Shown: positions 37,836 to 63,712 of the stretch, one piece after another
How positions within the stretch are numbered: position 1 is the stretch's first letter
How the letters are laid out: every line of letters starts with the position of its first letter
IMG/VR virus record: IMGVR_UViG_3300013306_000002
Location: 18,647 to 82,646 of that record
Length of the DNA: 64,000 bases
Reading direction: 5' to 3' (one strand)
DNA from: a virus
The notes under the pieces: model-generated
What the model saw: only the letters and a program-made list of their open reading frames with translations
What the model was told of the DNA's origin: nothing
The model's database searches: none
Program-made: the position numbers and the translations under genes

Positions 37836-38192
37836 TTACGGGAAGGCGATGTTGGTGTTGTAGCTCGCCAGGAGCGTGTTCCCCTGGGATATCGAGATGC
37901 CACCGGTGCTCTGAAGGAAGCTGGCCATCCAGCAGAGGCCGTAGAGCGCCTTGGCCGCCTGAGTGAGTTGAGTGAGCGTGATGTTGACTGCGGGCAACTG
38001 GTTCGCGATCGCGGAGAGCACCGTCAACCAGTTACTGACCGGATGGGAGTCCGGCTGCGACTCCGGGAACAGCGGTAGATTCTGAGAGCAAAAAACGGTG
38101 AGTACGTTCTTGACCTGATTCGCAATCGACCGCAGTGCCAGGTTGTCATACGACTGCCCAGCTGCCGCCGCGAGGGAAGTTGCAAAGGTCAT
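37836..38192 (-). CDS. Hypothetical protein of the second virion-type cluster (118 aa)
   Basis: The product is Ala/Leu/Asn-rich and mostly helical (LRSIANQVKNVLTVFCSQNLPLF, LTVLSAIANQLPAVNITLTQL), with two moderately hydrophobic segments and a polar C-terminus. It is the last gene of the leftward cluster running from ParB through transglycosylase. Convergent with the phosphatase. No family is recognised. Confidence 0.5.
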   Translation of the reverse strand: MTFATSLAAAAGQSYDNLALRSIANQVKNVLTVFCSQNLPLFPESQPDSHPVSNWLTVLSAIANQLPAVNITLTQLTQAAKALYGLCWMASFLQSTGGISISQGNTLLASYNTNIAFP

Positions 38193-38974
38193 GACTCGTC
38201 CTGGTCGGCTACATCGATTCGCAGGGGCGCCGGTCCTCCGTTGTTAAGCGAGAAGACCAACGCGTCAAACATCCCGTCGACTGTGGCGCGGATGATTTTC
38301 CGCACCGATGCCCCTGGGGCCACCACCGCTGGCGCCAGGATCGTCGTCTCCTGGTGGAAAGGGTTCACGCTGCTATCATCCGTAATGGCGTAGTTGACGG
38401 CGCTGATCCCGAACGTGTTGGGCGACACGTTATTACGGTTCGTGAAGTTCACGAACGCGTAGCGCCTTCCGTAATAGGGAACGACGATGTAGAGCACGTG
38501 GCCACCGGGCACCACGTAGTTTTGGAACACAAACTCCTTGTTGATTCTGGGCGGGACCACGGAGGCGAGCGGCGTAAAATACTGGACCACATCGAGCAGT
38601 GGAGGAACGAACTGGATCGTATCCCCTGCGACGGCGGCGCTGGGCCTGAAGTTTGGATCGTAGATGTCGTCCGACCAGAATAGGATCCTCCCGGGGCGAC
38701 CAGCGGGAACGTACTGGGCATCGTTGCGCGCGTTGACGAGACCCGTGAATGATCGGGTGGGCGAGATCGTCATAAACTGCATGAACGTCGGCACCTGATC
38801 ATCGAAGTACGCCATGTTGACGTTGGCGATGTCGCTATTGGGGCCCACGCAGAAGGCATGGCCACCCTGGTCAGACTCGTAGATGTCCCCAGGCGATGAG
38901 AGTGGCGTGTTCAGGCGAAAAAACCCGTAGTTGTTGACGGAGTAGGGTGTGGCTTGCGGTTGAGGAAAGGACAT
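38189..38974 (-). CDS. Beta-rich putative virion protein (261 aa)
   Basis: ATG 38974 overlaps the preceding stop (TGATG). The sequence is aromatic and beta-rich (YGFFRLNTPLSSPG, RILFWSDDIYD, EFVFQNYVVPGGHVLYIVVPYYGRRYAFVNF) and ends with KIIRATVDGMFDALVFSLNNG. There are no catalytic motifs. The size and strand pattern fit a capsid, spike or vertex protein. It is one of two capsid-type candidates, together with the gene at 15323. Confidence 0.45.
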   Translation of the reverse strand: MSFPQPQATPYSVNNYGFFRLNTPLSSPGDIYESDQGGHAFCVGPNSDIANVNMAYFDDQVPTFMQFMTISPTRSFTGLVNARNDAQYVPAGRPGRILFWSDDIYDPNFRPSAAVAGDTIQFVPPLLDVVQYFTPLASVVPPRINKEFVFQNYVVPGGHVLYIVVPYYGRRYAFVNFTNRNNVSPNTFGISAVNYAITDDSSVNPFHQETTILAPAVVAPGASVRKIIRATVDGMFDALVFSLNNGGPAPLRIDVADQDES

Positions 38975-39447
38975 CAGCGACCCGACTTTCCACTGGAAAG
39001 CATGGTCGCCGGGGCGGCCGGGACAACCCCCGAGGCCGCGCCCGCGAGACCCGTGATGGTCTCGAGCCACGGGTACGCTTCCACCAGGACCGCCACCGGG
39101 TTCACGCTGGTTGCGGCGATGTAGAGTCGATGCCCCTTCGCCACGTTGAAGGCGGTCGGCACGCCAGTTTGCAGGAGCTGACCGCGCCCCGAGAGAACTG
39201 GCGTTAGGTTGGCGTGTTGCCCGACCGCCACCGGGCCGGCCGTCTTGAGTGTCAGCGTGACCTTGGCCCACATTCGGTCAGCGTTGTACAGGATGTGCGT
39301 GCCGCCAATCTTGGTCAGGTATGTGGACACCTCGTTGCGATTCTCGGCGTCGCCCGTTGTGGCGGCCGGGGCCCTGGCCTGTGCCACGCTGGGGTTCAGC
39401 GAGACTGGAGCGAGTTTGTTGGAGCGGGGCGGGGCTGGCACGTTCAC
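38974..39447 (-). CDS. Small beta-barrel-like putative virion protein (157 aa)
   Basis: The start is GTG 39447, overlapping the transglycosylase stop (GTGA). A disordered Pro/Ala N-terminus precedes short strands (GGTHILYN, WAKVTLTLKTAGPVAVGQHANL, HRLYIAATSVNPVAVLVEAYPW) and a Gly/Ala/Pro-rich tail. It resembles small decoration or penton-type proteins. A perfect palindromic copy of the dispersed site lies in its 3' end (38986-39000). Confidence 0.45.
   Translation of the reverse strand: MNVPAPPRSNKLAPVSLNPSVAQARAPAATTGDAENRNEVSTYLTKIGGTHILYNADRMWAKVTLTLKTAGPVAVGQHANLTPVLSGRGQLLQTGVPTAFNVAKGHRLYIAATSVNPVAVLVEAYPWLETITGLAGAASGVVPAAPATMLSSGKSGR
38986..39000. repeat. Dispersed 15-bp site, fully palindromic copy
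   Basis: CTTTCCACTGGAAAG is a perfect palindrome around its central base and differs from the consensus by one base. It lies at the boundary of two putative virion genes. The symmetry argues for a dimeric binding protein. Confidence 0.65.
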
Positions 39448-40175
39448 CTCTTCAAGAGGAGCAGGTACCCCAGAATGAGAGCACCGACGGTGATCATGAT
39501 GGTACCAGAAAGCGGCTCGGTGAAATAGGGGGCGGCGTCATCCGGGATGGTGTACGGGCCGACCGGCGGGTCCGGGATTAGGATTGGCGGTCCGCTCAAC
39601 CCGGAAGAGACCGCCTGGCCGATCGCCCACTGCCGGTCGATGTCGAGTACGCGCGCGGCGACTTTTGTGGCGCTCTGACTTCCGAGCGGGACCGCGCCGC
39701 TCGAGGCCGTCCACTTTGCGATGTCGTGATAGACGTCGCCCGTCGTTAATCCACCGAGCGCAGCCTGGGCGAACTGCGCGAGTTGATGGGAACCAGCACG
39801 TCCCACCGCGAATGCTAGGCGTGCCAGCTTCCAGGAATCGTCTGTTCCGAGAATCGCCTCAGGGAAGGTAAGCATCCAGAGAACGGCCTCGAGTTCGTAC
39901 TCGAGCACGCCGATGGCAATGTTGGATTCCGGATCCATGCGGGCACCCGCGTCGAGGCTGAACAGTGGCGGTACATATGCCGCTACCTGCATGAACCCAA
40001 CCTCTCCAAGCGTCGGGTCGCCGGGCGCCCCGAAGTTACCGCCGCTCTCGTGCAGGATGATCGAGGCAACCCAGCCGGCCGGCAGCCCACCGCGGTACCT
40101 GTCGATCCATACCCCGAGCTGGTCGTAGATCGCCTTCGCGCGTGCTACGTCCGCGTCGAAGTTCGGGTCGGCCAC
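39444..40175 (-). CDS. Lytic transglycosylase (SLT-like) with C-terminal TM anchor (243 aa)
   Basis: GWVASIILHESGGNFGA holds the catalytic Glu43 in the H-E-S-G-G-N motif of SLT enzymes, and VGFMQVAAYVPPLF is the GxMQ motif. FAVGRAGSHQLAQFAQAAL follows. The C-terminus is a single membrane segment (SGTIMITVGALILGYLLLLKR) with a basic end. The enzyme cleaves peptidoglycan during entry or exit. A membrane-anchored transglycosylase within a virion cluster recalls membrane-containing phages such as PRD1 and PM2-like viruses. Confidence 0.8.
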   Translation of the reverse strand: MADPNFDADVARAKAIYDQLGVWIDRYRGGLPAGWVASIILHESGGNFGAPGDPTLGEVGFMQVAAYVPPLFSLDAGARMDPESNIAIGVLEYELEAVLWMLTFPEAILGTDDSWKLARLAFAVGRAGSHQLAQFAQAALGGLTTGDVYHDIAKWTASSGAVPLGSQSATKVAARVLDIDRQWAIGQAVSSGLSGPPILIPDPPVGPYTIPDDAAPYFTEPLSGTIMITVGALILGYLLLLKR

Positions 40176-40255
40176 GGAACGGGAGCGTAACGCGAGGCTG
40201 GCGCGACCGCAACCGCCGCTTCAAATGCCCCAGAAGCGGGGGCGCAAGAAGATGC

Positions 40256-40828
40256 TCACAGCGCCGCCATCAGGACATCCCTGGCCAAGTTGATGTTCGC
40301 CATCTTTTGGGTCGACCCCCCGTGATCCGGGTGATGCTTCTTGACCAGCACGCGGTGCCGCGCCTTGATCTTGTCGGCGTCCAGCAACTCGTGCATCTGG
40401 AACCCCATCACCTGCCGTGCCGCCGCCCGTGCCCTGTGGATCTCGGCCCCGGGGGGTGGTTGCTGCCGATGTCCGCCTGCGTGCGGGATATTCCAGTTCC
40501 ACGGGCGACGGGCGCCTGACTGGGCCCTCCGGTGAGATGCATCCTCCGAGACCCCGGAGATGTCCGGCCGGTAATCGCCCCCGATGCCAGCGACCCACTG
40601 GTTCAGAAACGCCTCCGCCGCGCCCAGGGTGGCCTCCCGGTTGATAGGGTTGCCCTGCAAGAAATCGCTCAGCGAGTCCAGCAGGACCCGCGCCGGCGGT
40701 CTTGGGCGGCTGGCCTCCGCCAGTGACACACGATGCGGCGGGCAGAGCGCTGGGTCGCCCGATCCGTCCATCGGACACCGGCGCGTGCCCTCCTTGTACG
40801 TGCAGCGCGGGACCCTGGCGCGTGGCAT
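40256..40828 (-). CDS. J-domain protein with N-terminal zinc-like motif (190 aa)
   Basis: Start ATG 40828 (MPRARVPRCTYKEGTRRC...ALCPPH) is favoured because the upstream translation lies within the neighbouring gene's region. Residues ~145-190 are a J domain: DADKIKARHRVLVKKHHPDHGGSTQKMANINLARDVL, with the HPD motif that stimulates Hsp70/DnaK. The N-terminal Cys/His motif matches that of the phosphatase gene. It may recruit host DnaK for virion assembly. Confidence 0.8.
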   Translation of the reverse strand: MPRARVPRCTYKEGTRRCPMDGSGDPALCPPHRVSLAEASRPRPPARVLLDSLSDFLQGNPINREATLGAAEAFLNQWVAGIGGDYRPDISGVSEDASHRRAQSGARRPWNWNIPHAGGHRQQPPPGAEIHRARAAARQVMGFQMHELLDADKIKARHRVLVKKHHPDHGGSTQKMANINLARDVLMAAL

Positions 40829-40835
40829 GCCCGGA

Positions 40836-41492
40836 TCACTCGGTCTCGGACGGATCGCCCAGCACAACCTCGGAGGTTGGTGTTGGTGTGGCCGTGCTGG
40901 CGGCGGCTGCGCGGGCGGCGATCTTCTCGGCAAGTCCGCGGTTCACCGGGATAGTGATCGGCGAACGCCGGTTATAGTCGTGCGGGACGGGCGGCTTGGG
41001 TCCGTACACCCCATCGAAGTCGATCGGGGGCACCACGGAGCGACCATCGTCGGCGACCACACATGTCATCGCTCCGTCGATGGGTACTGTGACCACGGAT
41101 CCGTCTGCGCCCTCCGTCGTGGTAGGCGGTGCGCCGTAATCGCGTACCATGCTCGTGTAGTTGGGCGGGAGATTGTCTCCCAAGGCATCCGCGAATATAT
41201 CGCCATCAAGGGTGCCGAACGGCCCTAGCGACTCGACGCCCATGGGCCATTGGGGGGCCACATCAGGGGTCTCCGCGTCGAAGTACGCGCGAGAATCGAA
41301 CGTCGGAGCATCGGTTGGCGCGGCGCCGGGTCGCGACCAGATGTGGCGAACGACAGCGACCACCGTCGTGGACAGCGCATACAGAATGGTCACCCACTTC
41401 GCGACATCTACGAACTGGTCAGGCGGGAGGAGCCCGAACGCACAGAGGGCCAGGATGCCAGCTGTGGTCAGGCCGAAGAACGCGTGTGGCAT
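40836..41492 (-). CDS. Membrane protein, paralogue of next gene (218 aa)
   Basis: Two N-terminal TM segments (FFGLTTAGILALCAFGLLP and WVTILYALSTTVVAVV) are followed by a long soluble tail rich in Pro/Asp. The stretch ALCAFGLLPPDQFVDVAKWVT resembles TLCALGFVAVDQWLDYTKW in the gene just upstream, which suggests duplication. The holin-like two-TM start makes a lysis or virion-membrane role possible. Confidence 0.5.
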   Translation of the reverse strand: MPHAFFGLTTAGILALCAFGLLPPDQFVDVAKWVTILYALSTTVVAVVRHIWSRPGAAPTDAPTFDSRAYFDAETPDVAPQWPMGVESLGPFGTLDGDIFADALGDNLPPNYTSMVRDYGAPPTTTEGADGSVVTVPIDGAMTCVVADDGRSVVPPIDFDGVYGPKPPVPHDYNRRSPITIPVNRGLAEKIAARAAAASTATPTPTSEVVLGDPSETE

Positions 41493-41498
41493 GCTCGG

Positions 41499-41846
41499 TC
41501 ACCCAGCCTTCGGCGGCGGAACGATGGCGACTGGCGGCGCGGGCGGCGACTCAGGTCTGGCCGGCGCCCGCTCGGTCGCCATCCTGGCCACGATGCCCGT
41601 GATCAGCGGCTCGATCTGCTGCCACACTGCCAGCGGCGCCTTCGGTTGCGCGGACGCAATCCCCACTACCCCGGTCACGGTCTTGGCGGCCGCATAGGTC
41701 ACGAAAATCCATTTCGTGTAGTCGAGCCACTGATCGACCGCGACAAATCCCAAGGCGCACAGCGTAGTGGCGGCAGCGATGAGCGCGACCGCGACAAGGC
41801 CGCGTTCGCTTTTCCAAAGATCCAGGATAGCTCCCATGGTGGGCAT
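41499..41846 (-). CDS. Small membrane protein, holin-like (115 aa)
   Basis: Two hydrophobic helices (LVAVALIAAATTLCALGFV, WIFVTYAAAKTVTGVVGI) with a short turn, an amphipathic helix and a Pro-rich C-terminus. It is related to the downstream protein. A second ATG 9 nt downstream (MGAILDLWKSER) is an alternative start. No proven family. Near the transglycosylase gene it could form a lysis pair. Confidence 0.5.
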   Translation of the reverse strand: MPTMGAILDLWKSERGLVAVALIAAATTLCALGFVAVDQWLDYTKWIFVTYAAAKTVTGVVGIASAQPKAPLAVWQQIEPLITGIVARMATERAPARPESPPAPPVAIVPPPKAG

Positions 41847-41899
41847 CCTGGCATGGAAGACGGTCCAACCTCAACATGAGGGAACCGCCGCTAAAGGTT

Positions 41900-41960
41900 G
41901 CGCGACCGGATCATGTCATCCAAGAACACCCGGTCGCGCTTCGCGCGGAGAATTCCGCGC
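41900..41960. terminator. Two adjacent hairpins downstream of parB-like gene
   Basis: GCGCGACCGG (41900-41909) pairs with CCGGTCGCGC (41930-41939), and GCGCGGA (41943-41949) pairs with TCCGCGC (41954-41960) around GAAT. They lie between the ParB stop (41966) and the next leftward gene (41846). The small hairpin has the same GCGG(A)...AATT...CCGC form as the one at 31208-31225. A terminator or RNA-processing site is likely; there is no U-tract. Confidence 0.5.
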
Positions 41961-41965
41961 CAAGG

Positions 41966-43396
41966 CTACTTGCGCTTGCCCTTCTTAGGGGGCTTGGCCG
42001 GAGTCGTGCCGGTCGCGTGGTGGATGTACTGGTGCCACTGCTTGGGTAGCGTCTCCATATCCATTCGGCCCGACGCCACCATGATGCCGAGGACCACGCC
42101 CTTCACCAAGTCGTGCGTCGGTGGCTTCTTGGCGGTCATGACCAGCAGATCCTCGATGATGACGGCCTGCATGGGTTTGGGTTTGGTCGGGGCAGCGGCC
42201 GGCGCAGGCTTATCAGGGCCCGAGGCAGCGGCCGGCGCAGACTTATCAGGGCCCGAGGCCAGTGGCAGATCGGCCTGGGGACCTGCGACCACCGGGCCCT
42301 TCTTACCCTTGCCCTGCTTCTTGGCGGCGCGCTTGGCCTCCTTGTCGGCCTTCCTCTGTGCCTTCGCCGCGTCCTTGTCGGCCTTGGCTTTGTCGCGCTT
42401 GACCTGCGCCTCCAGGCGGGCGACCTCCCTTCTTTCCTTGGCGCTCTGCCGCGCCCCGGACTTGTCGCCGGACGCCCGCGCCTCGGCCACGGCATCGGCC
42501 TGCTTCTCCTGCTCTGCACCCTTGGCGCTTACGGCCAGATCCCGGAACTGCTCCTCGCTGATCTCGCCTTTGCGCCAGCGCTCCAGCAACTTGGCACTCG
42601 CAGCCTTGCGAGCGGTCAGAATCTTGGAGACCCATGACTCGGATCGGCCAATCGTGGCCGCGATCGCCGCCATGGTGGTGATGTTTCCGGTATCGGGGTC
42701 GTTGGTCGCCCTCAACTCGGCCGCGCTCTCACTGAGTTCGAAGGCCGAGAGTCCCTCGCGCAACCCGACGACCCGCAGAACCTCCCGCAGATATAGTCGC
42801 GCCAAGTCCTGCGACCACTTGACGGGAACCGGCTCTCGGTCTCGCACCGGGATCAGGGCATCGTCTCCCAGTTCGGCCATGGTCGCCGCCTTGTGCCGCC
42901 GCTGTCCGTCCAGCACGAGCTCGTGGATCTCGCTCTTCGGGCCTTGAATGCGGACGACCAGCAGGGGGTCATTGATCCCCGCCAGGAGACCTTCCTCGGT
43001 GTTCTTCGAGTTCCGCTTGATGTCGTCGGCCAGGAGCCTGATCGAATCCGGATCCAGACCCGTGAAGGAGCGAGGATTTCGCCAGTGCTTGTAATCGAGC
43101 AGGAGATCGCCCAGCCGCGCCCATCGCGGCGTGCGTGCCTCGATCTCGTCGGCCGCCAACGCCTCAGCTTCGTTGTCGATCACCTCGGTCCCCTCGTCGG
43201 TTGGCCCCGCTCCGGGGCTGTCGTTCTCGATTTCGTTGTCATCCTCCCCATCCGCCTCGACGCCGGGGTCGGTCTCCTCCTCATGGGTAACCAGCCCCTC
43301 ATCCTCCTCGTCGTCGTCTTCATCCAGGGGACCCACCGTGCTGTCGTCGTACTCTTTGTCGCGGAGGTCCGGATCCAGAAACTCGAGGCTGCGCAT
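41966..43396 (-). CDS. parB: ParB/Spo0J-like DNA-binding protein (476 aa)
   Basis: ATG 43396 follows AGGAG. An acidic N-terminus (~residues 15-85) precedes LLAGINDPLLVVRIQ, HELVLDGQRRHKAATMAELGDDALIPV (the ParB-type DG.RR box) and TTMAAIAATIGRSESWVSKILTARK (helix-turn-helix). A basic coiled linker with two copies of the 11-residue unit SGPDKPAPAAA (33-bp repeats at 42195-42260) leads to a small C-terminal domain and a KKGKRK tail. No ParA partner is visible in the window. Role: centromere binding or transcription regulation, possibly at the dispersed 15-bp sites. Confidence 0.8.
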   Translation of the reverse strand: MRSLEFLDPDLRDKEYDDSTVGPLDEDDDEEDEGLVTHEEETDPGVEADGEDDNEIENDSPGAGPTDEGTEVIDNEAEALAADEIEARTPRWARLGDLLLDYKHWRNPRSFTGLDPDSIRLLADDIKRNSKNTEEGLLAGINDPLLVVRIQGPKSEIHELVLDGQRRHKAATMAELGDDALIPVRDREPVPVKWSQDLARLYLREVLRVVGLREGLSAFELSESAAELRATNDPDTGNITTMAAIAATIGRSESWVSKILTARKAASAKLLERWRKGEISEEQFRDLAVSAKGAEQEKQADAVAEARASGDKSGARQSAKERREVARLEAQVKRDKAKADKDAAKAQRKADKEAKRAAKKQGKGKKGPVVAGPQADLPLASGPDKSAPAAASGPDKPAPAAAPTKPKPMQAVIIEDLLVMTAKKPPTHDLVKGVVLGIMVASGRMDMETLPKQWHQYIHHATGTTPAKPPKKGKRK

Positions 43397-43584
43397 GGTC
43401 AATCTCCTGTCGGTTGGAAGAAAAGGTGGCAGGGACAACGGCATGAGGGGACCGTCGTCCTTTGCGTCGGTGGTGGGGTGTGCACCACTTCGCGGGCTAC
43501 TGCCATTGCCGGCCCTTGGCGTCTACCACCTCGGGCCAAGAGTCATCACCCATCATCTCGTTGCTGAACATCATGCACATCGGG

Positions 43585-43599
43585 CTTTCCACTGGCAAG
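43585..43599 (-). repeat. Dispersed 15-bp pseudo-palindrome, consensus copy
   Basis: The minus strand reads CTTGCCAGTGGAAAG, matching the consensus at all positions. It is in the intergenic region between the Dcm-like gene and the ParB-like gene, about 190 bp upstream of parB. Autoregulation of ParB from this site is possible. Confidence 0.65.
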
Positions 43600-43613
43600 G
43601 GCTTCGCAGCGTC

Positions 43614-44931
43614 TTACGCGCTCTGCTGTGCGATGGCTTCCAGGGAGGCCACGATGAACTCCACAGCTACCTGCGGGACGATCGAGTTGCCGTAGCCCCG
43701 CAGAAGCCCCACTCGGCCGGGTAACCCTGCAACCAGCGGGAATGTTCCGGGTTCAACTGGCCGGGCGACGGGTGGTCCGCCGGATGGGTCTCGGCAGAGG
43801 ACCCAGTCGGCATCGGCCCAGAATCCGCCAGTTGCGCCTGCAGGGATAGCGAGGTCACAGACTCGCCGATGTGGGTACCCGTCGCCTTGGTCTTGCGCTT
43901 GCGCTCCAGGAACGCTGGGGTCGCCCAGGATGCCGCTCGTATCACTTCGCCCGCCGTTGTCGGCAGATCCTGGCCGGTCGCCACCCTTCGCTTGCCGCCC
44001 TTGGCGCCGTCCGCCGCGCGGGGCGTCGGCCAGGACGCCAGCGCCGCCGCTCCGTGCAGGGTCAGTTGCACCTTCGTCCCGCTCTTCCTGGTCATGCCCT
44101 CGGGTGGCCCGACCGTTCCGCGCGCGTGCGCGTCGGGAGTCGGCCAGTGGCTCAGTCTCGCCACTTCGTTCAGCGGCCGGGCGTTCTCGCCGTGCATGTT
44201 CGACGCGCTGGACTTCCAGTCCCTTGCCGCCGGGGTGGACCATGGCTGCCGTCCGGGCCGCGCCCAGTAGCATCGGATTGTTCGGCCCGTGGTGGAATGT
44301 CTCCCTGCTCGCCGTGCCATCGCTGGCCAGCGGGGTTGGCCACACGGCGGTCTTTGCCGCCCCCGCCAGCTTGAGCGTCGGCGTCTCGTGGTCCCCGTTC
44401 GCGTACGAGTAGTCCCCGCGGGACACGGTCGGTGTAGGCCACGAAGTACAGCCGCTGTCGCTGGTGCGGAGCGCCGACGCCCGCCGCGCACAGATCCGCC
44501 GCCCCGACGGTGTAACCGCATCGTTCCAGGTCAGCGAAAACAACGTCGAGCCACCCAAGGCCATCCTTGCTCGCAACCTGCTCTCCAAAGAGGATTGGAG
44601 GGCGACACTCCTGGATGAGTGCGAACCATGCTGGCCAAAGATGTCGAGCGTCGCGAACTCCTTCCCCCTTGCCCGCATCGCTGAACGGCTGGCAGGGGCA
44701 ACTGCCGGTCCAGATGTCGGCGTCATCAGGGATGCTCGCGAGGCGGAGGGCATACGACCAGCCGCCGATGCCCCCGAAGAAATGCCGCTGTCCAGGTCCA
44801 GCGACGTCTGCGGGTGTGAGATCGGCGATGGAGCGCCGGTCAACTCGTCCTGGGGCGATGTGGCCATGGGTGATGAGACTCTCCAGCCAGTCGGCTGCGA
44901 AGGGATCGTTCTCGTTGTAGAGGGCCGTCAC
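43614..44931 (-). CDS. dcm: DNA cytosine-5 methyltransferase, split by a one-base insertion
   Basis: GTG 44931 overlaps the upstream stop. The first frame has YNENDPFAADWLESLI, HFFGGIGGWSYALRLA (motif I), WTGSCPCQPFSDAGKG (motif IV with the Pro-Cys nucleophile), FGEQVASKDGLGW (in place of ENV) and GAPHQRQRLYFVA (motif VIII), but it runs to a spurious stop at 44170. The other half, ending GRVGLLRGYGNSIVPQ (motif X) at 43614, lies in another frame. Removing one base near 44243 joins them into a normal-length phage Dcm of about 438 residues. As sequenced, the enzyme is probably inactive unless frameshifting occurs. Confidence 0.85.
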
Positions 44932-45212
44932 CGGGCCCAGGTGCGCTGACAGACATCGGGAACGGAATACGATCCATCCCAGGTCCGCTGCATCGTGGCT
45001 ACGGCCCCCAGGCAGGCATCCTGGTCCCGATCGTTCACCGTCCCGCCCATGCCGCACCACTGGTGATAGACGATCGGGCAACCCGGAGCGCCGGGCGCCG
45101 CCGCGTCGCACCAAGCGTCGGCCTGTTCCTGGCAGGCCTCCGCGCGGGGCATGTCAGGGATGGAGATGGTGCAGGCGGTGAGCGCCAGCGTGCAGAGGAT
45201 GGCGACGCGCAT
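44928..45212 (-). CDS. Cys-rich lipoprotein (94 aa)
   Basis: The N-terminus MRVAILCTLALTACTIS has a lipobox L-T-A-C with Cys14. The mature part has six further Cys (ACQEQADAWC, GCPIVYHQWC, DACLGAV, VCQRTW) spaced as in exported disulfide-rich proteins. It follows a tiny membrane protein gene by TGATG overlap. A spanin-like outer-membrane partner or envelope protein is possible; a Gram-negative host is implied. Confidence 0.6.
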   Translation of the reverse strand: MRVAILCTLALTACTISIPDMPRAEACQEQADAWCDAAAPGAPGCPIVYHQWCGMGGTVNDRDQDACLGAVATMQRTWDGSYSVPDVCQRTWAR

Positions 45213-45301
45213 CACAACCACCACCCGAGGGTAACGACCGAGACCAGCACGCCAGCCAGGACGCCGCTGGCGAAGGCCAGTGGGTATGCGAGAGCGCGCA
45301 T
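45212..45301 (-). CDS. Very small membrane peptide (29 aa)
   Basis: ATG 45301 and TGA 45212-45214 both overlap neighbouring genes (TGATG). The whole product is one hydrophobic helix (ALAYPLAFASGVLAGVLVSV). Its coupling to the lipoprotein suggests the two are made together at the envelope, but it lacks the coiled periplasmic part of an inner-membrane spanin. Confidence 0.45.
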   Translation of the reverse strand: MRALAYPLAFASGVLAGVLVSVVTLGWWL

Positions 45302-54347: not shown

Positions 54348-54349
54348 CT

Positions 54350-54933: not shown

Positions 54934-54935
54934 GG

Positions 54936-55585: not shown

Positions 55586-55590
55586 TCAGG

Positions 55591-55722: not shown

Positions 55723-55883
55723 TTGAGAGGGTTCTCGCTCCGGATTTGGGCTCCGGAATGGGGTCAAGCAACCCCTAGGCCAGTGACCATGGGCTGCAGA
55801 CCCCAGATCGACCTGCCTCGAAAGCGCTCCGAAATCCCACCTCGAGTCCACCGGAACCCCACGGGAGCGCGCATGATGCCCGA

Positions 55884-56729: not shown

Positions 56730-57175
56730 GCATCGAGCAACTGAAGCAAGATCTGAAGGATGTCACCAGCGCGCTGCCGACCGGCCCGCTCGTGACAGCG
56801 GCCGAGATGTCGGCCTACCTGAAGAACAACCTTCTACCCTTCATCGAGTCCGCTATAACCGAGATGGAGGAGATGGACGGGTCCATCGAAGATCTCGTCG
56901 TCCACGGCCAGGAGGTGCTGCACGAAGAGAATGCAGCGTTGTTCATGGCGCTCATCACGAGCGGGACAACCCTGGCCAAGGAACTCGAAGAGTTGGCCGC
57001 GAAGACCGGAGACGGCAAGCGGATCGCGTTGCTCATCAAGGAGTGGCGCGATCTTGCTGAGCAGGGCGCGGAGGTGCTCGAGGACATCACGATCCCGGAC
57101 CCCGACGCGGAGCCCGAGCCGGATGAGACTCCGGCCGTCGAATCTCCTGCCCTACCGGCGGGAGGGAAAGCATGA
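56726..57175 (+). CDS. Helical protein, probable virion/assembly component (149 aa)
   Basis: ATG 56726 follows AAGGAG and overlaps the previous stop. Long helices (QLKQDLKDVTSALP, MSAYLKNNLLPFIESAITEMEEM, ITSGTTLAKELEELAAK) fill the first 110 residues, and the acidic Pro-rich tail is disordered. No family is recognised. It is coupled to the coiled-coil gene by ATGA. Confidence 0.5.
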   Translation: MSIEQLKQDLKDVTSALPTGPLVTAAEMSAYLKNNLLPFIESAITEMEEMDGSIEDLVVHGQEVLHEENAALFMALITSGTTLAKELEELAAKTGDGKRIALLIKEWRDLAEQGAEVLEDITIPDPDAEPEPDETPAVESPALPAGGKA

Positions 57176-58881
57176 AGGGCCGCGCAGGCGTCGCCGCGAC
57201 CGCGGAAGATGCGGATGCGGAGCCCGACCAGCCAGCGGCGGCGTCCACGGATGATGCGCCCAAGGAGCCAGCGGCGGTCGCGGAGGAGGCGTCCAAGAAG
57301 ACCGAGCCACAGCGCGAGAAACTCTCCCCGACGATGCGGAAGATCCGCGATGAGGAGGAGCAGTCGCTCAAGGCCTGGCTCGAGACCATCGGCACCCAGG
57401 GAGCATTCAAAGTTCAACTCCGGCGGACCGAGCCGGCCACCTGCTGGGACATCCGCAAGAACGACAACGTCAAGGTGAAGGGCTACCTTGGCACCTTCGA
57501 CCACACCATCGACGAGGCGTTCATCGCGCGCGAGTACGGCGGCGGCACCTTCGCGCTGCGGGTGACGAGGCAGGGCGCCGATGGAAGCTTTCAGTACGAG
57601 AAGGGGCTCCACCGGACGATCGAGATCGCTGGCGAGCCCAGGACCGACCGACTTCCTTCGAACGCGCCGCAACCGCCCCCGCAAGCACCCCCGAACCACG
57701 GTGAGAGCGGCACCGTCGTCCAGCACGCGCTCGATATGATGGAGCGCATGGTCAGCAAGCAGGGAGCGCACGAGCCCAAGGGGATCGACCCGGCCATGGC
57801 GATGCTGGTCGAGCAGATGAGGGAGTCGCAGCGCACCCAAGCCAAGGAGATGGCGGATCTCCGCGCCGAACTCTCAGCCGCGCGCAACCAGAAGCCGCCC
57901 GAGGATCCGTTCCGGGACCGGATGCTCGACAAGCTGATCGATGGCGACTCGGCGCGCGTCACCGCGCTCCGCACGCAGCACGACAGCGAGATCCGCATGC
58001 TCAAGGAGGGCCACCAGCAGGAGATCCGTCTGCTTGAGGATCGCCACGACCGCTCCATGAAGCAGATGCAGCAGAGCCACGAGCTCATGCTGGCGAACAT
58101 GAAGGCCAGCTATGAGCGCGAGATTGCCGCCTTAAACACCGCGCACCAAGTGGCTGCGACGGCGACCTCGACCACAAAGGATGTCACCGTCACGACGCTC
58201 AACGCCGAGCTCCGCCGCATGGACGCCGAGCTCGCCGCGTTGCGCGCCGAGAACAAGGAACTCCGCGAGCGCAAGGACAAGTCCGTGATCGAGCAGATAA
58301 AGGACATGAACGTGCTCAAGGAGGCGCTGGGCGGTGACGGGGACGGGGACGGGTCGACCATCAAGGAGGCCATCGCGATGGTCCCGGCGGCCATCGAAGG
58401 CATCGGCGCCATCGTTGCCAGCCGGTCGGCGGCGCAGCAGCAACCGCAGCAAGTCCAGGGTCGCGCCACGGCGCAGGCCCAGCAACAGCGACCGCGGGTG
58501 GTCGCGGCGCCGAACGGGGAGCGCCTGATGCAGGTCGGCAACAGGCTCGTCCCGGTCAAGCCCAAGCCCAAGGTGGTGACCACGGACGCTGGCGAGACCA
58601 TCGAGATCCCCAAGATCGAGGATCCCACCATCAAGCTCATCATCTCCCAACTCGAGGCGGCGTTCGGTCGAGACGAAGACCCCAACATCGTGGCCCAGTC
58701 CGCCAAGGCTATGATTCCGCCCGACATCCTGGCATGGATCCGCCAGCACCACACCGAGCAGGTGGCGGGCGTTGACCTGTTCATGCAGAAGGTGGCAAAG
58801 TTGCCGGGCACCTCGCCCCTGGCAACGCAGGGGGGGCGCAACTGGTTACGCAAGGTCGGGGCAGCCCTCATCGGAGAGTGA
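57172..58881 (+). CDS. Long coiled-coil structural protein (569 aa)
   Basis: A disordered acidic start (1-45) precedes a beta domain (KVQLRRTEPATCWDIRKNDN, VKGYLGTFDHTIDEAFIA, YGGGTFALRVTRQGADGSFQY). From ~190 to ~390 the chain is a coiled coil (ALRTQHDSEIRMLKEGHQQE, NAELRRMDAELAALRAENKE). A Gln-rich linker and a helical C-terminus (DPTIKLIISQLEAAFGRDED) follow. The layout suits a scaffold or a fibre-like virion protein. No tape-measure features (long Ala/Gly, TM, peptidase) are seen. Confidence 0.55.
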   Translation: MKGRAGVAATAEDADAEPDQPAAASTDDAPKEPAAVAEEASKKTEPQREKLSPTMRKIRDEEEQSLKAWLETIGTQGAFKVQLRRTEPATCWDIRKNDNVKVKGYLGTFDHTIDEAFIAREYGGGTFALRVTRQGADGSFQYEKGLHRTIEIAGEPRTDRLPSNAPQPPPQAPPNHGESGTVVQHALDMMERMVSKQGAHEPKGIDPAMAMLVEQMRESQRTQAKEMADLRAELSAARNQKPPEDPFRDRMLDKLIDGDSARVTALRTQHDSEIRMLKEGHQQEIRLLEDRHDRSMKQMQQSHELMLANMKASYEREIAALNTAHQVAATATSTTKDVTVTTLNAELRRMDAELAALRAENKELRERKDKSVIEQIKDMNVLKEALGGDGDGDGSTIKEAIAMVPAAIEGIGAIVASRSAAQQQPQQVQGRATAQAQQQRPRVVAAPNGERLMQVGNRLVPVKPKPKVVTTDAGETIEIPKIEDPTIKLIISQLEAAFGRDEDPNIVAQSAKAMIPPDILAWIRQHHTEQVAGVDLFMQKVAKLPGTSPLATQGGRNWLRKVGAALIGE

Positions 58882-58882
58882 C

Positions 58883-59404
58883 ATGACAGCGGAAAGTTTC
58901 CTGGATGTCTACCTCGCCGCGCTGCTCGCTGGAATCACGCTCTGGGCGTTCGTGTTCACGGTCTACAAGCCGATATCCGAGTACCTGATGCGGCGGAACG
59001 GATGGAAGCAAACGGCCCCAGACGAGTGGACCTACTCGGACGATGATGTGCCCGACCGGGGGATCGTGACCGAGGCACCAGCGCGCTCGCATCGGATCTG
59101 GGCACGCAGGGGGCATGCTCATGCTGGCGGTCGCCTGCAGGTGTTTGTGGACATTCCAGGTATCGGGTGGAAGGTCGTATTCGACGAACCCTGGCCTCTC
59201 GGCGCGTGCAACATCGAGTGCCTCTGGAATGGCGATCTCACGAAGCTGAAGCTCGCGCAGAATGGCCCTGCCCTCACACTGGAGGAACTGTCGGAGGATC
59301 CGCGAACGAGAGGGAATGGCAGCGTAAGCATGCATTGGGACGGCCCTGGGACGGCCCCGCGCTATCAAAGCGGTGGAATGGAGGCCGGACGCGGACAACG
59401 CTGA
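58883..59404 (+). CDS. Membrane-anchored protein (173 aa)
   Basis: The N-terminal hydrophobic segment (FLDVYLAALLAGITLWAFVFTVYKP) is followed by a soluble beta domain (AGGRLQVFVDIPGIGWKVVFDE) and a polar tail. It starts 1 bp after the coiled-coil gene. A weak copy of the dispersed site overlaps its start codon (58882-58896). The 74 bp that follow contain no gene. Confidence 0.5.
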   Translation: MTAESFLDVYLAALLAGITLWAFVFTVYKPISEYLMRRNGWKQTAPDEWTYSDDDVPDRGIVTEAPARSHRIWARRGHAHAGGRLQVFVDIPGIGWKVVFDEPWPLGACNIECLWNGDLTKLKLAQNGPALTLEELSEDPRTRGNGSVSMHWDGPGTAPRYQSGGMEAGRGQR

Positions 59405-59478
59405 TTCCACGCCGGAATCTCTCGATATCGAGTAGAATCGGCGGGTCGCCTCTCATCTTTTCCGGGTGAAGGCAATGC

Positions 59479-60096
59479 TTGCACCGAGCCCCCCATAGCC
59501 TGACGGTCTCGCCGCTCCAGCCGATATCCGGCCTGGGGTACGGTGGATCGCGCCTGTTCTGGATGCCGGATGAGCCACCCACCAGTCTTTGTGGCTACCT
59601 CGGGGCACCGCAGACGATCAGCGTGATGCGTCAGGCGGCGCTCGACGACGCCAGCCACTTCGAGACACGCCAGCTTGCCGAGGCGGTGTGTGAGGGCCTC
59701 GACTCGAAGGACTACTGCTCCGAGTATATGGCGCTCTACTACTGCCTGCTCCAGCGGACGCGCTACATGCGCGACCCCCGGCGCACCGAGCTCGTCCGGG
59801 CACCCTACATCATCAGCCGCCAGATCCTGGCCGGCCACCGGCCCTCGATTGATTGCGACGATGGAGCCCTGTGGCTCGCCGCAGCGATCCTCTCAGTAGG
59901 GGGCCAGCCAGACTTCATCACCTGCGCCTTCAAGCGCATGTACTACGATGGGCGCATCCAGCACAGCCATGTGTTCACCCGGGCGCTCGAGCCCCGGAAT
60001 CGGACCCGCATCGTGCTGGATCCGGTCGCCGCCGAGAAGACCCCACAGATGCTACGCCGTATCGTCGATGCCTCCGTCTGGCCGGTCGCGGCCTAA
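59479..60096 (+). CDS. Transglutaminase-like protein (205 aa)
   Basis: TTG 59479 is the best upstream start; ATG 59563 is an alternative. RPSIDCDDGALWLAAAILSVGG carries a candidate nucleophile Cys126 in the DCDD(G)A context of transglutaminase-like folds. QHSHVFTRA gives His162/164 and RIVLDPVA gives Asp181, completing a Cys-His-Asp triad. DPRRTELVRAPYIISRQILAG precedes the active site as in the family. It could be a protease or a cross-linking enzyme acting on virion or cell-wall substrates. Confidence 0.7.
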   Translation: MHRAPHSLTVSPLQPISGLGYGGSRLFWMPDEPPTSLCGYLGAPQTISVMRQAALDDASHFETRQLAEAVCEGLDSKDYCSEYMALYYCLLQRTRYMRDPRRTELVRAPYIISRQILAGHRPSIDCDDGALWLAAAILSVGGQPDFITCAFKRMYYDGRIQHSHVFTRALEPRNRTRIVLDPVAAEKTPQMLRRIVDASVWPVAA

Positions 60097-60110
60097 CCCA
60101 AGGAATCAAG

Positions 60111-61922
60111 ATGGCCTACAACCTTCCACCAGCCTGGGATGCAGGGTTCGCGCTCCCCAAGAACGTCCGCGACGAGGGCCTGCAGCGCCGCGCGTTCGTC
60201 ACCAAGCAGATGCCGCGCGGCACGTACGACGACTCGACCGACGGGACGGCCGGTTACAACGTCCCGCAGTACATCAAGGACGAGGGCACTGGCCAGGGCG
60301 CGTTCACCACGTTCTGGCAACCGCGCGGCACGTACAACGGCGGCAAGGTTCCGCACTGGCTGAACAAGCGACCGACCGTCACCGGCGTGATCCCGCTTCC
60401 CGGCGGCGGCCAGCAGATCACCATGCAACCAGCGGGCATGGGCGACGACGCGCCGATGGGCGAGCCGTTCGACACCTACGGCCAGAAGGCGGCGCAACTC
60501 ATCATCTCGAGGTTTCAGACTGTTCCCCAGCCCCAGCGCCAGAAGGCGATGCGAGCCTTCCTGGATTCCGTCGACAAGAGCCTGTGGACCCGGACCACGG
60601 ACATCTTCAACCGCTACGTGCAGCAGCAGAAGATCCCCCCGGCCAACGCCTTTCCGCTGGCGCTGGCACGCGCACTTTCCACTGGCATCACGGCCGAGAT
60701 CATCGCGACGGGCCTCCGACGTACGGCGCCCCAGGCCAACTCGCTCCTGGGCCTGGGGTGCTATGGCTGTGCAGCCTTTCTGGGAGCGATGGGGGATGAC
60801 ACCGCCGGATGTCAGGCGGCGCCCGCCGGATACACGTGGATCTATGGAGCCACAGTGAACGGCCAAGCCATCCCCGGCCACTGGGCGAAGGCGGCGGCGG
60901 GGCAACCTGTGCAGGCGTTCTGCTTGACGCCGCCGCCTGGAGCCATCACGGCCGCCACCATCGCGGCGACCGGGACGACCGAAGTGAGAGACCACGGGGC
61001 TGGCTATGACTGGTTCGTCGGTCCGTTTGGGTTCAACTCGAGCACCTTCAAGCCCCGCGTGTGGGGCATCGGGGCCCCCTCCGCGACCATCGCGAACCGG
61101 GCTGCGCCACCGGACATCATGTACTTGACCCCCGGGGATCTCCCGGCGACCCCCCAGCTCGCCTACGTCCGGCCCATGATCCCCGAGGTGCTGGCGTGGC
61201 TGAAGGCGCGACTGACCGAGGCCAAGGACTCAAGCGGCAACGGCGACACTCCGACGACGTATGTCGATATGGCCGGCAACCGCCAAGCGTCGAGCTACAT
61301 GTTCGATGGCAACGGCAATCTCTCGCAGGGCCAAGCAGACGACGCCAAGATGTGGTTCGATGCGATGGGCATCCAGCCGGGTACGCCGGTCCGACTTCAC
61401 ACGCTCTGGAACCTGAAAACCGGCGGCGCGCCCATGGCCAGGACGACCCACATCAAGACGGGCGCCAACATGGCACTGGCGGTGTCACTGGCGCCGATGG
61501 ATCTCACCAGGGGAGACTGGTCCAAGGCCAATCCGCTCGTGCTCAAGGTCTGGCTCTCGTCGGTCCCCGATCCGAACATTTTCGGCGCTCTCTGGAATCC
61601 GATGATCCTGATCAACCCCCTGACCGCCCTGCAGGCCATCGCCTCGGTGACGGCGGGCATCGCGCCGATCCTGGGGAATCTCGCCTGCGACGTCCTCGGC
61701 AACCCCGCAGCTGGCGCAGCCGCCGGGGCTGCGGCTGCGGCGTACGGAATCCCGCCGCAGGCCGGCACCGCTGGCGTCGCTCTGGCAGCGTCGCAATGCG
61801 GGCAGCCGCCACCACCGCCACCCGTGGTGGCTGCAAAGCGCTCCGTCTGGCCGTGGGTGCTGGGGGGTGGCGCGGTCGTCGTGGCGGCGCTGCTAACCAA
61901 GCCCAGGAGGGCAACGCCATGA
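60111..61922 (+). CDS. Large putative virion protein with C-terminal TM (603 aa)
   Basis: ATG 60111 is preceded by AAGGAATC. The N-terminus has two related units (PKNVRDEGLQRRAFVTKQMPRGTYD and VPQYIKDEGTGQGAFTTFWQPRGTYN). The middle mixes helices and beta segments, and a Gly/Ala-rich hydrophobic region lies at ~500-555. The C-terminus is a TM segment (SVWPWVLGGGAVVVAALL) with TKPRRATP. Its size and operon position indicate a major structural component anchored in a membrane. No family is recognised. Confidence 0.55.
   Translation: MAYNLPPAWDAGFALPKNVRDEGLQRRAFVTKQMPRGTYDDSTDGTAGYNVPQYIKDEGTGQGAFTTFWQPRGTYNGGKVPHWLNKRPTVTGVIPLPGGGQQITMQPAGMGDDAPMGEPFDTYGQKAAQLIISRFQTVPQPQRQKAMRAFLDSVDKSLWTRTTDIFNRYVQQQKIPPANAFPLALARALSTGITAEIIATGLRRTAPQANSLLGLGCYGCAAFLGAMGDDTAGCQAAPAGYTWIYGATVNGQAIPGHWAKAAAGQPVQAFCLTPPPGAITAATIAATGTTEVRDHGAGYDWFVGPFGFNSSTFKPRVWGIGAPSATIANRAAPPDIMYLTPGDLPATPQLAYVRPMIPEVLAWLKARLTEAKDSSGNGDTPTTYVDMAGNRQASSYMFDGNGNLSQGQADDAKMWFDAMGIQPGTPVRLHTLWNLKTGGAPMARTTHIKTGANMALAVSLAPMDLTRGDWSKANPLVLKVWLSSVPDPNIFGALWNPMILINPLTALQAIASVTAGIAPILGNLACDVLGNPAAGAAAGAAAAAYGIPPQAGTAGVALAASQCGQPPPPPPVVAAKRSVWPWVLGGGAVVVAALLTKPRRATP
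60675..60689 (-). repeat. Dispersed 15-bp pseudo-palindrome copy
   Basis: The minus strand reads GATGCCAGTGGAAAG, two bases off the consensus and identical to the copy at 950-964. It is inside the coding region of the 603-residue virion protein and opposite to its direction. Confidence 0.5.
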
Positions 61923-62383
61923 AGCAGACTTCTCGCGATCTCCTGAGCGCCATCGGCATGGGGCAGCACAACGCCACGCAGGCGATCCCGTACCTGATGA
62001 TTGCGCCCGCGACCACGGACCCCAAAACGCCGATGGTCATCAACATGGTCCGCCACGTCCAGCAGCAGCTCTACCAAATGGGGGCGACCGACGTGGCCAA
62101 CAGTGGCTACCTGGATGCGCCGACCGCTGCGGCGCTGCTGCAGATCGCTGGACCCGACTGGGAGCGGATGTCGTGGGCCCAGAACATCCAGGCGGTCCTG
62201 GGTGCTCGCGACCGCGGGATGAGCCTCTCGCCGCCCCCGCCCGCCCGGTCCGCCGCGCCTATGCCAGCGGCGGTCAGCGGCCCCTTGGACTTCCTGCCCG
62301 ACGTCCCCGGCGGTATCGTCACCTACGGCGTGGCGTTCTACCTGCTCTACCGTCACTTCACCAAGCCAAGGAGCGCGCGATGA
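61919..62383 (+). CDS. Small virion-type protein with C-terminal TM (154 aa)
   Basis: ATG 61919 overlaps the previous stop. The middle VINMVRHVQQQLYQMGATDV...LDAPTAAALLQIAG resembles a degenerate peptidoglycan-binding repeat. A Pro/Ala linker leads to a TM segment (GGIVTYGVAFYLLYRHF) and the basic tail TKPRSAR. It is probably membrane-anchored with a soluble head. Confidence 0.55.
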   Translation: MKQTSRDLLSAIGMGQHNATQAIPYLMIAPATTDPKTPMVINMVRHVQQQLYQMGATDVANSGYLDAPTAAALLQIAGPDWERMSWAQNIQAVLGARDRGMSLSPPPPARSAAPMPAAVSGPLDFLPDVPGGIVTYGVAFYLLYRHFTKPRSAR

Positions 62384-63084
62384 CCTACCTCGTGAGGAGG
62401 CGACCCGGGATGGGCGACTTCATGACCGATTCGAACCCGTTCTGGTCGGGCGACAACACGGGCCTAGTCGACTTCATGACCGGCACGAGCGCGGTCACCG
62501 CGGATGCCGCGCCCGCCTCCGACAACGTGAACCAGACGGCGACGGGAACCACGACCAGCGCCGCCGACTTCACCGTGGTCAGCGGCGTATGCAAGCCCAT
62601 GAACTTCCCGGCGCTGGCGACCGTGCGCGCGTTTCAGGCGCAGCTCAACCGCGTCGCGCAGGCCAAGGGGTTCTCCAAGATCGCCGCCGATGGGGCCGTT
62701 GGGCCCGCGACGATGGCGCTGTTCAAGAAGGTCCAGGCTGCAGCGCCGCGCGGCCAGATCATGGGGGATGCCTCCACCTGCATCAACATCTCCGCGGATG
62801 TCGACGTGCTGGGGCAGCAGATCCAGGTGTTCGCCGACGCGCTGGGTGCACCGGCCACGGTGGGCGCCTCGCCCTCGCTGTCGCCGCCCAGCATCACGAC
62901 CAAGAGCGGAGCCACGGTGGTGGCACCGGATGCTGGCATCCTAGGGTCGCTGGCCACGCTGTCGGGCACCGAGAAGCTGGCGCTCCTGGGGGTCGCCGGC
63001 GGGCTGGGTTACATGCTGCTCAAGAAAAAGCCCAGGGTGCACCAGACGGTGCGCTACACGCGGCGAACCACACGGAGGCGGTAA
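62380..63084 (+). CDS. Peptidoglycan-binding-like protein with C-terminal TM (234 aa)
   Basis: Residues ~85-125 (VRAFQAQLNRVAQAKGFSKIAADGAVGPATMALFKKVQ) fit the PG_binding_1 pattern with DGxxGPxT. The head is Thr/Ala-rich. The C-terminus has a hydrophobic segment (LALLGVAGGLGYMLLKKK) followed by VRYTRRTTRRR. Together with the transglycosylase it would place cell-wall-binding functions at the membrane, as in entry machinery of membrane-containing phages. Confidence 0.65.
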   Translation: MTYLVRRRPGMGDFMTDSNPFWSGDNTGLVDFMTGTSAVTADAAPASDNVNQTATGTTTSAADFTVVSGVCKPMNFPALATVRAFQAQLNRVAQAKGFSKIAADGAVGPATMALFKKVQAAAPRGQIMGDASTCINISADVDVLGQQIQVFADALGAPATVGASPSLSPPSITTKSGATVVAPDAGILGSLATLSGTEKLALLGVAGGLGYMLLKKKPRVHQTVRYTRRTTRRR

Positions 63085-63323
63085 TGTACCTACCCATGGG
63101 CGATGCGGCGCCGGTCGCGCCCCCGAGATCAAGCATCCACGACATCGTCGCCTCGGAGGGCGTGAGCACGGCCGCGACCATCGCGCTGACCTACCACGGG
63201 TACAAGCGGACGGGTTCGCTCGTCTGGGCGCTGATCTACGGCATGGCCGGGCGGTGGTTCCCGGTGGTGGCGGTGCCGGTGTCGCTCGCACAGGGGTTCG
63301 GCGAAAGGAAGCCCTGCCCATGA
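63084..63323 (+). CDS. Small membrane protein (79 aa)
   Basis: ATG 63084 overlaps the previous stop. A polar N-terminus is followed by VSTAATIALTYHGYKRTGSLVWALIYGMAG and WFPVVAVPVSLAQGF, giving two hydrophobic helices. It is coupled to the next gene by ATGA. A virion membrane component is inferred from context. Confidence 0.5.
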   Translation: MYLPMGDAAPVAPPRSSIHDIVASEGVSTAATIALTYHGYKRTGSLVWALIYGMAGRWFPVVAVPVSLAQGFGERKPCP

Positions 63324-63712
63324 GGCATACGTACGGCTACACCTACCGCGGGGGCCCGCTCATTCGCTGGGGCCACGGGTCGCCAGTTCAGGCCAAGGCG
63401 GCGGACGCCCAGTCACTGGGGTCGCTCGAAGAGTCGACGCTGTCCACGCCGACCCTATACGGGTCCAGCATCCTGCCGGCGCCCGGCGCCCCCGAGCCGA
63501 TCGGCGTGTCCAACCAGCGCATGCAGGCCATGGGGGACACCCAGGTCTACGAGGCGATGGGCGGATGCAGCTGCAGCGGGACCTGTGGATGTGGAACGCC
63601 CGCCGCGGCGACCGGCGCGCTGTCGGGGTTCGCGGACGCGGTGCCCGGCGGCTGGGTCACGCTGGGCGTGGGAACGCTCCTATTGTGGCACTTCATGAAG
63701 AGGCGGAGGTAG
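63320..63712 (+). CDS. Small virion-type protein with Cys cluster and C-terminal TM (130 aa)
   Basis: The N-terminus YGYTYRGGPLIRWGHG is followed by a disordered Ser/Pro stretch, a cluster CSCSGTCGCG that could bind metal, and a TM segment (GGWVTLGVGTLLLWHFM) with KRRR. It repeats the anchored-tail design of the three genes before it. Confidence 0.55.
   Translation: MRHTYGYTYRGGPLIRWGHGSPVQAKAADAQSLGSLEESTLSTPTLYGSSILPAPGAPEPIGVSNQRMQAMGDTQVYEAMGGCSCSGTCGCGTPAAATGALSGFADAVPGGWVTLGVGTLLLWHFMKRRR

What the first reader, a model, noticed from the sequence alone, without database searches (positions are those of the whole stretch)
37836..63712. Possible membrane-containing, tailless virion encoded by two or three clusters
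At least six proteins end in one hydrophobic segment plus a basic tail (genes at 16121, 39444, 60111, 61919, 62380 and 63320). One is a lytic transglycosylase and two carry peptidoglycan-binding-like segments. Beta-rich capsid-type candidates (15323, 38189, 38974, 13929) sit beside them. No terminase, portal, tape measure, tail tube or baseplate gene is visible in 64 kb. Membrane-containing phages such as PRD1 and PM2 use membrane-bound transglycosylases and jelly-roll capsids. The large size and the beta-helix spikes would be novel for that group.
Basis: inference. Interest (0 to 1): 0.78.

Follow-up and report, generated by a model that had tools for sequence, protein, structure and literature searches.

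The report
Large tailless membrane phage family
This 82.5-kb circular genome belongs to an apparently undescribed family of 13 virus genomes that seem to build tailless, membrane-lined particles from two small jelly-roll capsid proteins, are three to five times larger than known viruses of that build, and lack any recognisable DNA-packaging motor, as expected of a missing evolutionary intermediate.

Summary
The window is part of a complete 82,646-bp record (exact 123-bp end repeat; one gene reads across the join). I found 12 relatives (10 virus contigs, 2 contigs in genome bins); complete ones are mostly 75-86 kb. AlphaFold2/Foldseek places those two adjacent proteins nearest the small and large single-jelly-roll capsid proteins of SH1/HHIV-2/P23-77 (Halopanivirales); the large one also hits SPV1 (Portogloboviridae). 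These fold matches are weak but agree with each other and with gene order. Directly upstream, a ~548-aa protein joins a 40% Arg/Lys domain to membrane helices. Genomes carry 8-17 tail-anchored basic membrane proteins (tailed controls 0-1). No terminase, tail, portal or packaging ATPase was found (controls rang); no conserved cluster shares a Walker A motif. Best reading: a new family of large, tailless, internal-membrane phages with two vertical single-jelly-roll capsid proteins that condense DNA rather than pump it. It fails the ATPase and genome-size criteria of Halopanivirales. No earlier report was found in the papers searched.

The parts
57172..58881 (+). g125, 569-aa coiled-coil protein that opens the main virion module (the module continues across the circular join: g006 core protein record 2338-3984, g007 small capsid candidate record 4134-4709, g008 large capsid candidate record 4840-5481, membrane proteins g009-g011 record 5559-7091, all on L001 and outside the window)
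   Evidence: 10/13 records, syntenic; no family hit above cut-off; capsid genes:
59563..60096 (+). g127, transglutaminase-like cysteine peptidase (invariant C98, H136, D153)
   Evidence: two relatives carry an intein directly before the catalytic Cys
60111..61922 (+). g128, 603-aa protein with C-terminal membrane anchor
   Evidence: 10/13 records; anchor
61919..62383 (+). g129, tail-anchored protein with weak peptidoglycan-binding-like segment
62410..63084 (+). g130, tail-anchored protein with weak peptidoglycan-binding-like segment
63084..63712 (+). g131 and g132, small membrane proteins of the same module
63820..63999 (+). g133, first half of a ~97-aa membrane protein that continues across the circular join as g001 (record 45-233)
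   Evidence: exact 123-bp terminal repeat and in-frame overlap
39444..40175 (-). g098, tail-anchored lytic transglycosylase-like protein
38974..39441 (-). g097, 155-aa conserved structural candidate
   Evidence: 11/13 records
38189..38974 (-). g096, 261-aa beta-rich conserved structural candidate (possible penton, vertex or spike protein; fold not tested)
   Evidence: 9/13 records, 25-87% identity; no PDB sequence hit
37836..38192 (-). g095, 118-aa conserved partner of g096
   Evidence: 8/13 records
15323..16069 (-). g065, diverged paralog of the small capsid candidate g007 (possible penton or minor capsid)
   Evidence: 38% identity to g007 over 124 aa, E 9e-16
16476..17114 (-). g067, paralog of the g006 membrane domain without the Arg/Lys-rich domain
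16121..16465 (-). g066, tail-anchored membrane protein
13929..14285 (-). g062, domain shared with the ice-binding adhesin g024 (accessory or receptor-binding, not capsid)
   Evidence: 45% identity; PF11999 in g024
19992..26602 (.). g073 (+), g075 (-), g076 (-): beta-helix/spike-like proteins sharing a ~105-aa N-terminal anchor domain
   Evidence: 38-44% identity; pectate-lyase/beta-helix in g076

Best explanation
The window is most of a complete circular ~82.5-kb genome of a prokaryotic virus (host unproven) from a new family. Its virion is most likely a tailless icosahedron with an internal lipid membrane. The shell is built from two vertical single-jelly-roll capsid proteins (g007 small, g008 large) encoded side by side. 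The membrane carries about ten or more tail-anchored proteins with basic C-terminal tails, including peptidoglycan-cleaving enzymes (g098 transglycosylase-like, g021 M23 peptidase) used to enter or leave the cell. Exchangeable beta-helix and adhesin proteins share anchor domains and act as receptor spikes. Inferred packaging mechanism: no motor pumps DNA into a preformed shell; the Arg/Lys-rich membrane protein g006 condenses the circular genome onto the membrane, and the shell assembles around that core, as in SPV1. Shown: genome completeness, family, synteny, absence of detectable tail, terminase and known ATPase genes, excess of tail-anchored proteins. Supported by prediction only: the jelly-roll folds. 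Inferred: lipid membrane in the particle, ATPase-free packaging, entry role of the enzymes.
For: Complete genome: exact 123-bp terminal repeat, one gene reads across the join; 10 of 13 family records have exact end repeats of 32-141 bp. Family and synteny K3-K6-K0-K1-K4-K2. Capsid fold: for g008 the PDB hits include HHIV-2 6h82_A (rank 1, prob 0.99), SPV1 6oj0_A (rank 2, 0.93), P23-77 VP17 3zmn_A (rank 4, 0.96) and SH1 6qt9_C (rank 10, 0.89); for g007 the best hit is SH1 6qt9_a, with 6qt9_g and HHIV-2 6h82_I also listed. Small-then-large order with structural genes around it matches P23-77 VP15-VP16-VP17 and SH1 VP12-VP7-VP4-VP13. Tail anchors: 8-17 versus 0-1. No tail, head or packaging family among the PHROGs matched by 101 proteins; no terminase in 9 virus records; the Halopanivirales ATPase profile rings in P23-77 (3e-40) and SH1 (2e-78) but finds only two marginal matches here, in helicase-type P-loop proteins; no conserved cluster shares a Walker A motif. 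Arg/Lys-rich membrane protein in every record.
Against: No isolate, electron micrograph or proteome. The g007 model is poor (pLDDT 57, pTM 0.53); TM-scores to known capsid proteins are about 0.3 for both, and no PDB hit has E below 1e-3. There is no sequence similarity to known single-jelly-roll capsid proteins. The genome is about 3-5 times larger than known Halopanivirales. An unrecognised motor cannot be excluded. The tail-anchored array is itself unlike SH1 and P23-77, which have one such protein each by the same filter.
Confidence: 0.7

Rival explanations
1. Same kind of virion, but packaging uses an ATPase that is too diverged to recognise or is borrowed from the host (for example a host FtsK or HerA protein).
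For: Known Halopanivirales carry a packaging ATPase, and diverged P-loop proteins can be missed; several conserved proteins have no assigned function.
Against: No conserved cluster shares a Walker A motif; the profile that detects P23-77 and SH1 ATPases finds only two marginal helicase-type matches; FtsK and HerA Pfam models find nothing, although those models were not shown to detect P23-77 or SH1 ATPases; SPV1 and FLiP show that motor-free membrane viruses exist (PMC8812541).
Confidence: 0.2
2. A tailed phage whose head, tail and terminase genes have diverged beyond recognition.
For: Most structural proteins have no database match; one weak tape-measure-like PHROG hit to g128 (E 0.63) and beta-helix spikes that tailed phages also have.
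Against: No terminase in 9 virus records with a profile that rings in 11 of 14 control genomes; none of the 24 PHROGs matched by 101 proteins is a head, tail or packaging family; no large tape-measure-like protein in the conserved module; excess of tail anchors; fold matches to single-jelly-roll capsids.
Confidence: 0.05
3. The elements are plasmids or episomes whose conserved module makes a surface or secretion structure, not a virion; g007 and g008 would be jelly-roll adhesins or spike proteins.
For: ParB-like g102, tyrosine recombinase and circular genome; jelly-roll and adhesin folds overlap; two members were binned into bacterial genomes.
Against: Nothing similar to g007 in 72,556 plasmid records; the other members are in a virus collection; two adjacent proteins independently match the small and the large capsid protein of the same virus group in the right order; lytic enzymes, spikes and a DNA-condensing-type protein are in the same syntenic modules.
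Confidence: 0.07

Closest known systems
Halopanivirales (SH1, HHIV-2, P23-77, SNJ1; kingdom Helvetiavirae, realm Singelaviria)
   Same: Two adjacent single-jelly-roll capsid candidates, small then large, with membrane-type genes around them; lytic enzymes; circular DNA as in P23-77 and SNJ1.
   Different: 75-86 kb instead of 16-31 kb; no FtsK/HerA-type packaging ATPase found; no sequence similarity; an Arg/Lys-rich membrane protein upstream of the capsid pair; a large array of tail-anchored proteins.
Portogloboviridae (SPV1)
   Same: Circular DNA, no packaging ATPase (PMC8812541), internal membrane and nucleoprotein core (PMC8459092); g008 matches the SPV1 capsid chain 6oj0_A.
   Different: SPV1 is 20 kb, infects archaea and has one hexamer-forming jelly-roll capsid protein plus a penton protein; here there are two conserved capsid candidates plus a diverged paralog.
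Finnlakeviridae (FLiP), Corticoviridae (PM2), Tectiviridae (PRD1)
   Same: Tailless internal-membrane bacterial viruses; FLiP also lacks a packaging ATPase (PMC8812541).
   Different: Double-jelly-roll capsid protein and small genomes (from general knowledge and PMC8812541); no double-jelly-roll capsid chain from these viruses appears among the 50 listed PDB hits for either protein.

Membership tests
Halopanivirales / Singelaviria | Two major capsid proteins with vertical single jelly rolls | tested here: inconclusive
   AF2 plus Foldseek: best hits are the corresponding capsid proteins, but with weak E-values and TM about 0.3
Halopanivirales / Singelaviria | FtsK/HerA-type genome packaging ATPase | tested here: not met
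   phrog_2666 positive in P23-77 and SH1; only two marginal helicase-type matches in the family; no shared Walker A motif in conserved clusters
Halopanivirales / Singelaviria | Small and large capsid genes adjacent, small first, among other structural and membrane-protein genes | tested here: met
Halopanivirales / Singelaviria | Genome of about 16-31 kb | tested here: not met
   75.6-86.4 kb for most complete-like members, 68 kb for one binned contig
Halopanivirales / Singelaviria | Internal lipid membrane | not testable with these tools
   Only indirect: 8-17 tail-anchored proteins per genome
Halopanivirales / Singelaviria | Detectable capsid protein sequence homology | tested here: not met
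   hhalign E 0.71 and 0.095 against P23-77 VP16 and VP17; no PHROG hit for g007 or g008. Known members also share little sequence identity between families, so this is a weak criterion
Portogloboviridae | Circular dsDNA, no packaging ATPase, nucleoprotein core | tested here: inconclusive
   Circular and no ATPase found; Arg/Lys-rich g006 suggests but does not show a nucleoprotein core
Portogloboviridae | ~20-kb genome, Sulfolobales hosts | tested here: not met
   Genome size; host unknown, binned contigs labelled Thermomicrobiales and Deltaproteobacteria
Caudoviricetes (tailed phages) | Large terminase, portal, HK97 capsid, tail genes | tested here: not met
[quoted passage not shown]
   The two most conserved capsid candidates are about 200 aa, one barrel each by prediction; g096 was not modelled

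The most novel reading that the evidence does not exclude
A class- or order-level group of large (75-86 kb) viruses with two single-jelly-roll capsid proteins but no packaging motor. It is the intermediate predicted between portogloboviruses (one jelly-roll hexamer protein, no motor) and helvetiaviruses (two, with motor), so capsid gene duplication came before motor acquisition, and motor-free DNA condensation can serve a genome four times that of SPV1.
Probability: 0.4. Interest if true: 0.88.

Novelty: new variant of a known kind. Interest (0 to 1): 0.78.

Why it matters
PMC8812541 proposes that two-jelly-roll membrane viruses arose from an SPV1-like ancestor by capsid gene duplication plus capture of a packaging ATPase. 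A family with two capsid candidates and no ATPase would let the order of those two steps be tested, would take this capsid type from about 30 kb to over 80 kb, and would show that a motor-free route can package an 80-kb genome. The phage and plasmid records and protein-family libraries used here hold nothing that resembles its capsid genes.

Tried and rejected
FtsK (PF01580) and HerA (PF01935) searches were empty, but I later found that these models had not been shown to detect P23-77 or SH1 ATPases, so I replaced them with phrog_2666, which does. Sequence searches of g007 and g008 in phages, plasmids and PDB gave nothing credible. hhalign of the beta-rich clusters against the other conserved clusters found no remote paralogs; the first run mis-parsed its output and was repeated. 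Searching 395 and 400 genomes from the phyla of the two binned contigs found no copy other than those contigs, so host and provirus state stay open. Rfam found no group I intron in G011. The SPV1 record (KY780159) was not in the collections. G009 gene calls (72% G+C) were unreliable and were excluded from the N-terminal leader count. A Tyr-containing N-terminal leader is enriched in tail-anchored proteins (93/170 vs 137/1256; per cluster odds ratio 6, p 7e-10), but the pattern was chosen after seeing the data.
Full report
What the record is. The window is bases 18647-82646 of an 82,646-base virus record. I fetched the other 18.6 kb. The record has an exact 123-bp terminal repeat, and g133 at the right end and g001 at the left end are two halves of one ~97-aa gene with the overlap in frame, which matches the intact 94-111-aa orthologs in relatives. 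The genome is therefore complete and circular or circularly permuted, so absence of genes can be argued. Record coordinate = window coordinate + 18646.

The family. A profile of the paralogs g007 and g065 found eight virus contigs and two contigs in genome bins labelled Thermomicrobiales and Deltaproteobacteria. A profile of g007 alone added two more virus contigs, and an independent scan with g008 returned the same ten virus contigs. Together with this record, 13 are in hand (G000-G012). Ten have exact terminal repeats of 32-141 bp; nearly all full-length records are 75.6-86.4 kb, one binned contig with repeats is 68 kb, and two others are fragments of 22.9 and 55 kb. Nothing similar to g007 exists in 50,697 phage or 72,556 plasmid records. 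No paper in the held library names the contigs tried, and topical searches found no description of such viruses; most subscription papers and bioRxiv are not covered.

The virion module. Gene order is strongly conserved: coiled-coil g125, transglutaminase-like g127, membrane-anchored g128-g132, g001, g002-g005, then g006-g007-g008-g009-g010-g011. In this record the module starts at window 57172 and continues across the join into record positions 1 to about 12,000.

Capsid candidates. g007 (record 4134-4709) is in all 13 records (191 aa in most, 61-99% identity). g008 (record 4840-5481) follows it in 12. AlphaFold2 gave eight strands for g007 with low confidence (pLDDT 57) and a long helix plus nine strands for g008 (pLDDT 74). 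In the PDB the best match of g007 is SH1 chain 6qt9_a, with 6qt9_g and HHIV-2 6h82_I also listed. The matches of g008 include HHIV-2 6h82_A (rank 1), SPV1 6oj0_A (rank 2), P23-77 VP17 (rank 4) and SH1 6qt9_C (rank 10), with probabilities of 0.89-0.99 for these chains. In the HHIV-2 paper subunit A is a VP4 (large) and D and I are VP7 (small) subunits (PMC6414509); I assign the SH1 chains by length (inference). So two neighbouring genes independently match the small and the large capsid protein of the same virus group, in the same order as in P23-77 and SH1. Each match alone is weak (E about 6e-3 to 7e-3 at best, TM about 0.3), and sequence comparison is negative. In the library of predicted viral structures the named hits of g008 include several circovirus-type capsid proteins, mixed with other viral proteins.

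Membrane side. Family genomes encode 8-17 proteins with one C-terminal hydrophobic segment and a basic tail (5 in the 22.9-kb fragment); tailed-phage stretches have 0-1 and shuffled proteins of this genome 1.9 on average. g098 keeps the transglycosylase motif in all orthologs. g021 is an M23 peptidase (E 1e-10) with a C-terminal membrane segment. g127 keeps a C-H-D triad, relatives score as transglutaminase-like (E 3e-6), and in two relatives an intein sits directly before the catalytic Cys.

Packaging. The terminase profile phrog_2 is absent from all nine virus records searched. The profile that finds the P23-77 and SH1 ATPases finds only two marginal matches, in helicase-type proteins. No conserved cluster shares a Walker A motif. 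None of the 24 PHROGs matched by 101 of the record's proteins is a head, packaging or tail family. In contrast, the gene upstream of g007 encodes a protein with a long N-terminal domain of roughly 35-45% Arg+Lys fused to membrane helices; in this record the longest frame is 548 aa, record 2338-3984. SPV1 and FLiP lack packaging ATPases (PMC8812541), and SPV1 holds circular DNA as a nucleoprotein core inside a lipid layer (PMC8459092). I infer the same strategy here; this step is not shown.

Spikes. g073, g075 and g076 share a ~105-aa N-terminal domain with different C-terminal parts, one a beta-helix. g024 joins the g062-type domain to an ice-binding-like adhesin domain (E 4e-64). These look like exchangeable receptor-binding proteins.

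Judgement. Observation confirmed; interpretation supported in its core but corrected in detail. By kind this is a new variant: single-jelly-roll membrane viruses of unusual size without a recognised motor. It should not be filed as Halopanivirales, because two tested features (ATPase, genome size) are not met, though it probably works like one in its shell and like SPV1 in its packaging.

Noticed in passing
L070:14244-15672 (G011): The small capsid gene of relative G011 is interrupted by an ~0.8-kb insert with stops and a LAGLIDADG-like reading frame (WLAGLIDGEG), i.e. an intron-like element in the capsid gene; neither Rfam nor Pfam recognised it.
   Followed up: partly
L085:852-2225 and L070:6616-8076: Inteins with LAGLIDADG domains inserted directly before the catalytic Cys of the transglutaminase-like peptidase in two relatives.
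   Followed up: partly
L027:14498-16459 and relatives in 6 genomes: A 531-653-aa protein family with a Cas12f1/TnpB-like nuclease domain (Pfam E 6e-5, below cut-off); no direct repeats beside it in L027.
   Followed up: partly
N-termini of tail-anchored proteins, e.g. L001:8762-9025, L070:18191-20312: A shared Met-x-Tyr plus basic plus Leu-Gly N-terminal leader in many tail-anchored proteins, possibly a virion-targeting or cleavage signal (pattern chosen post hoc).
   Followed up: partly
window:43614-44197 (-): Overlapping fragments that look like a broken DNA methylase; 78 bp match Rhodobacter phage DNA methylase genes at 92-94% identity.
   Followed up: no
window:48962-52171 (-): 1069-aa fusion of a DUF6094 methyltransferase and an SNF2-type helicase, resembling phage anti-restriction proteins.
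   Followed up: no
window:32486-33283 (-) and 27739-28836 (-): NADAR-domain protein (E 5e-26) and DUF5131 protein (E 5e-81).
   Followed up: no
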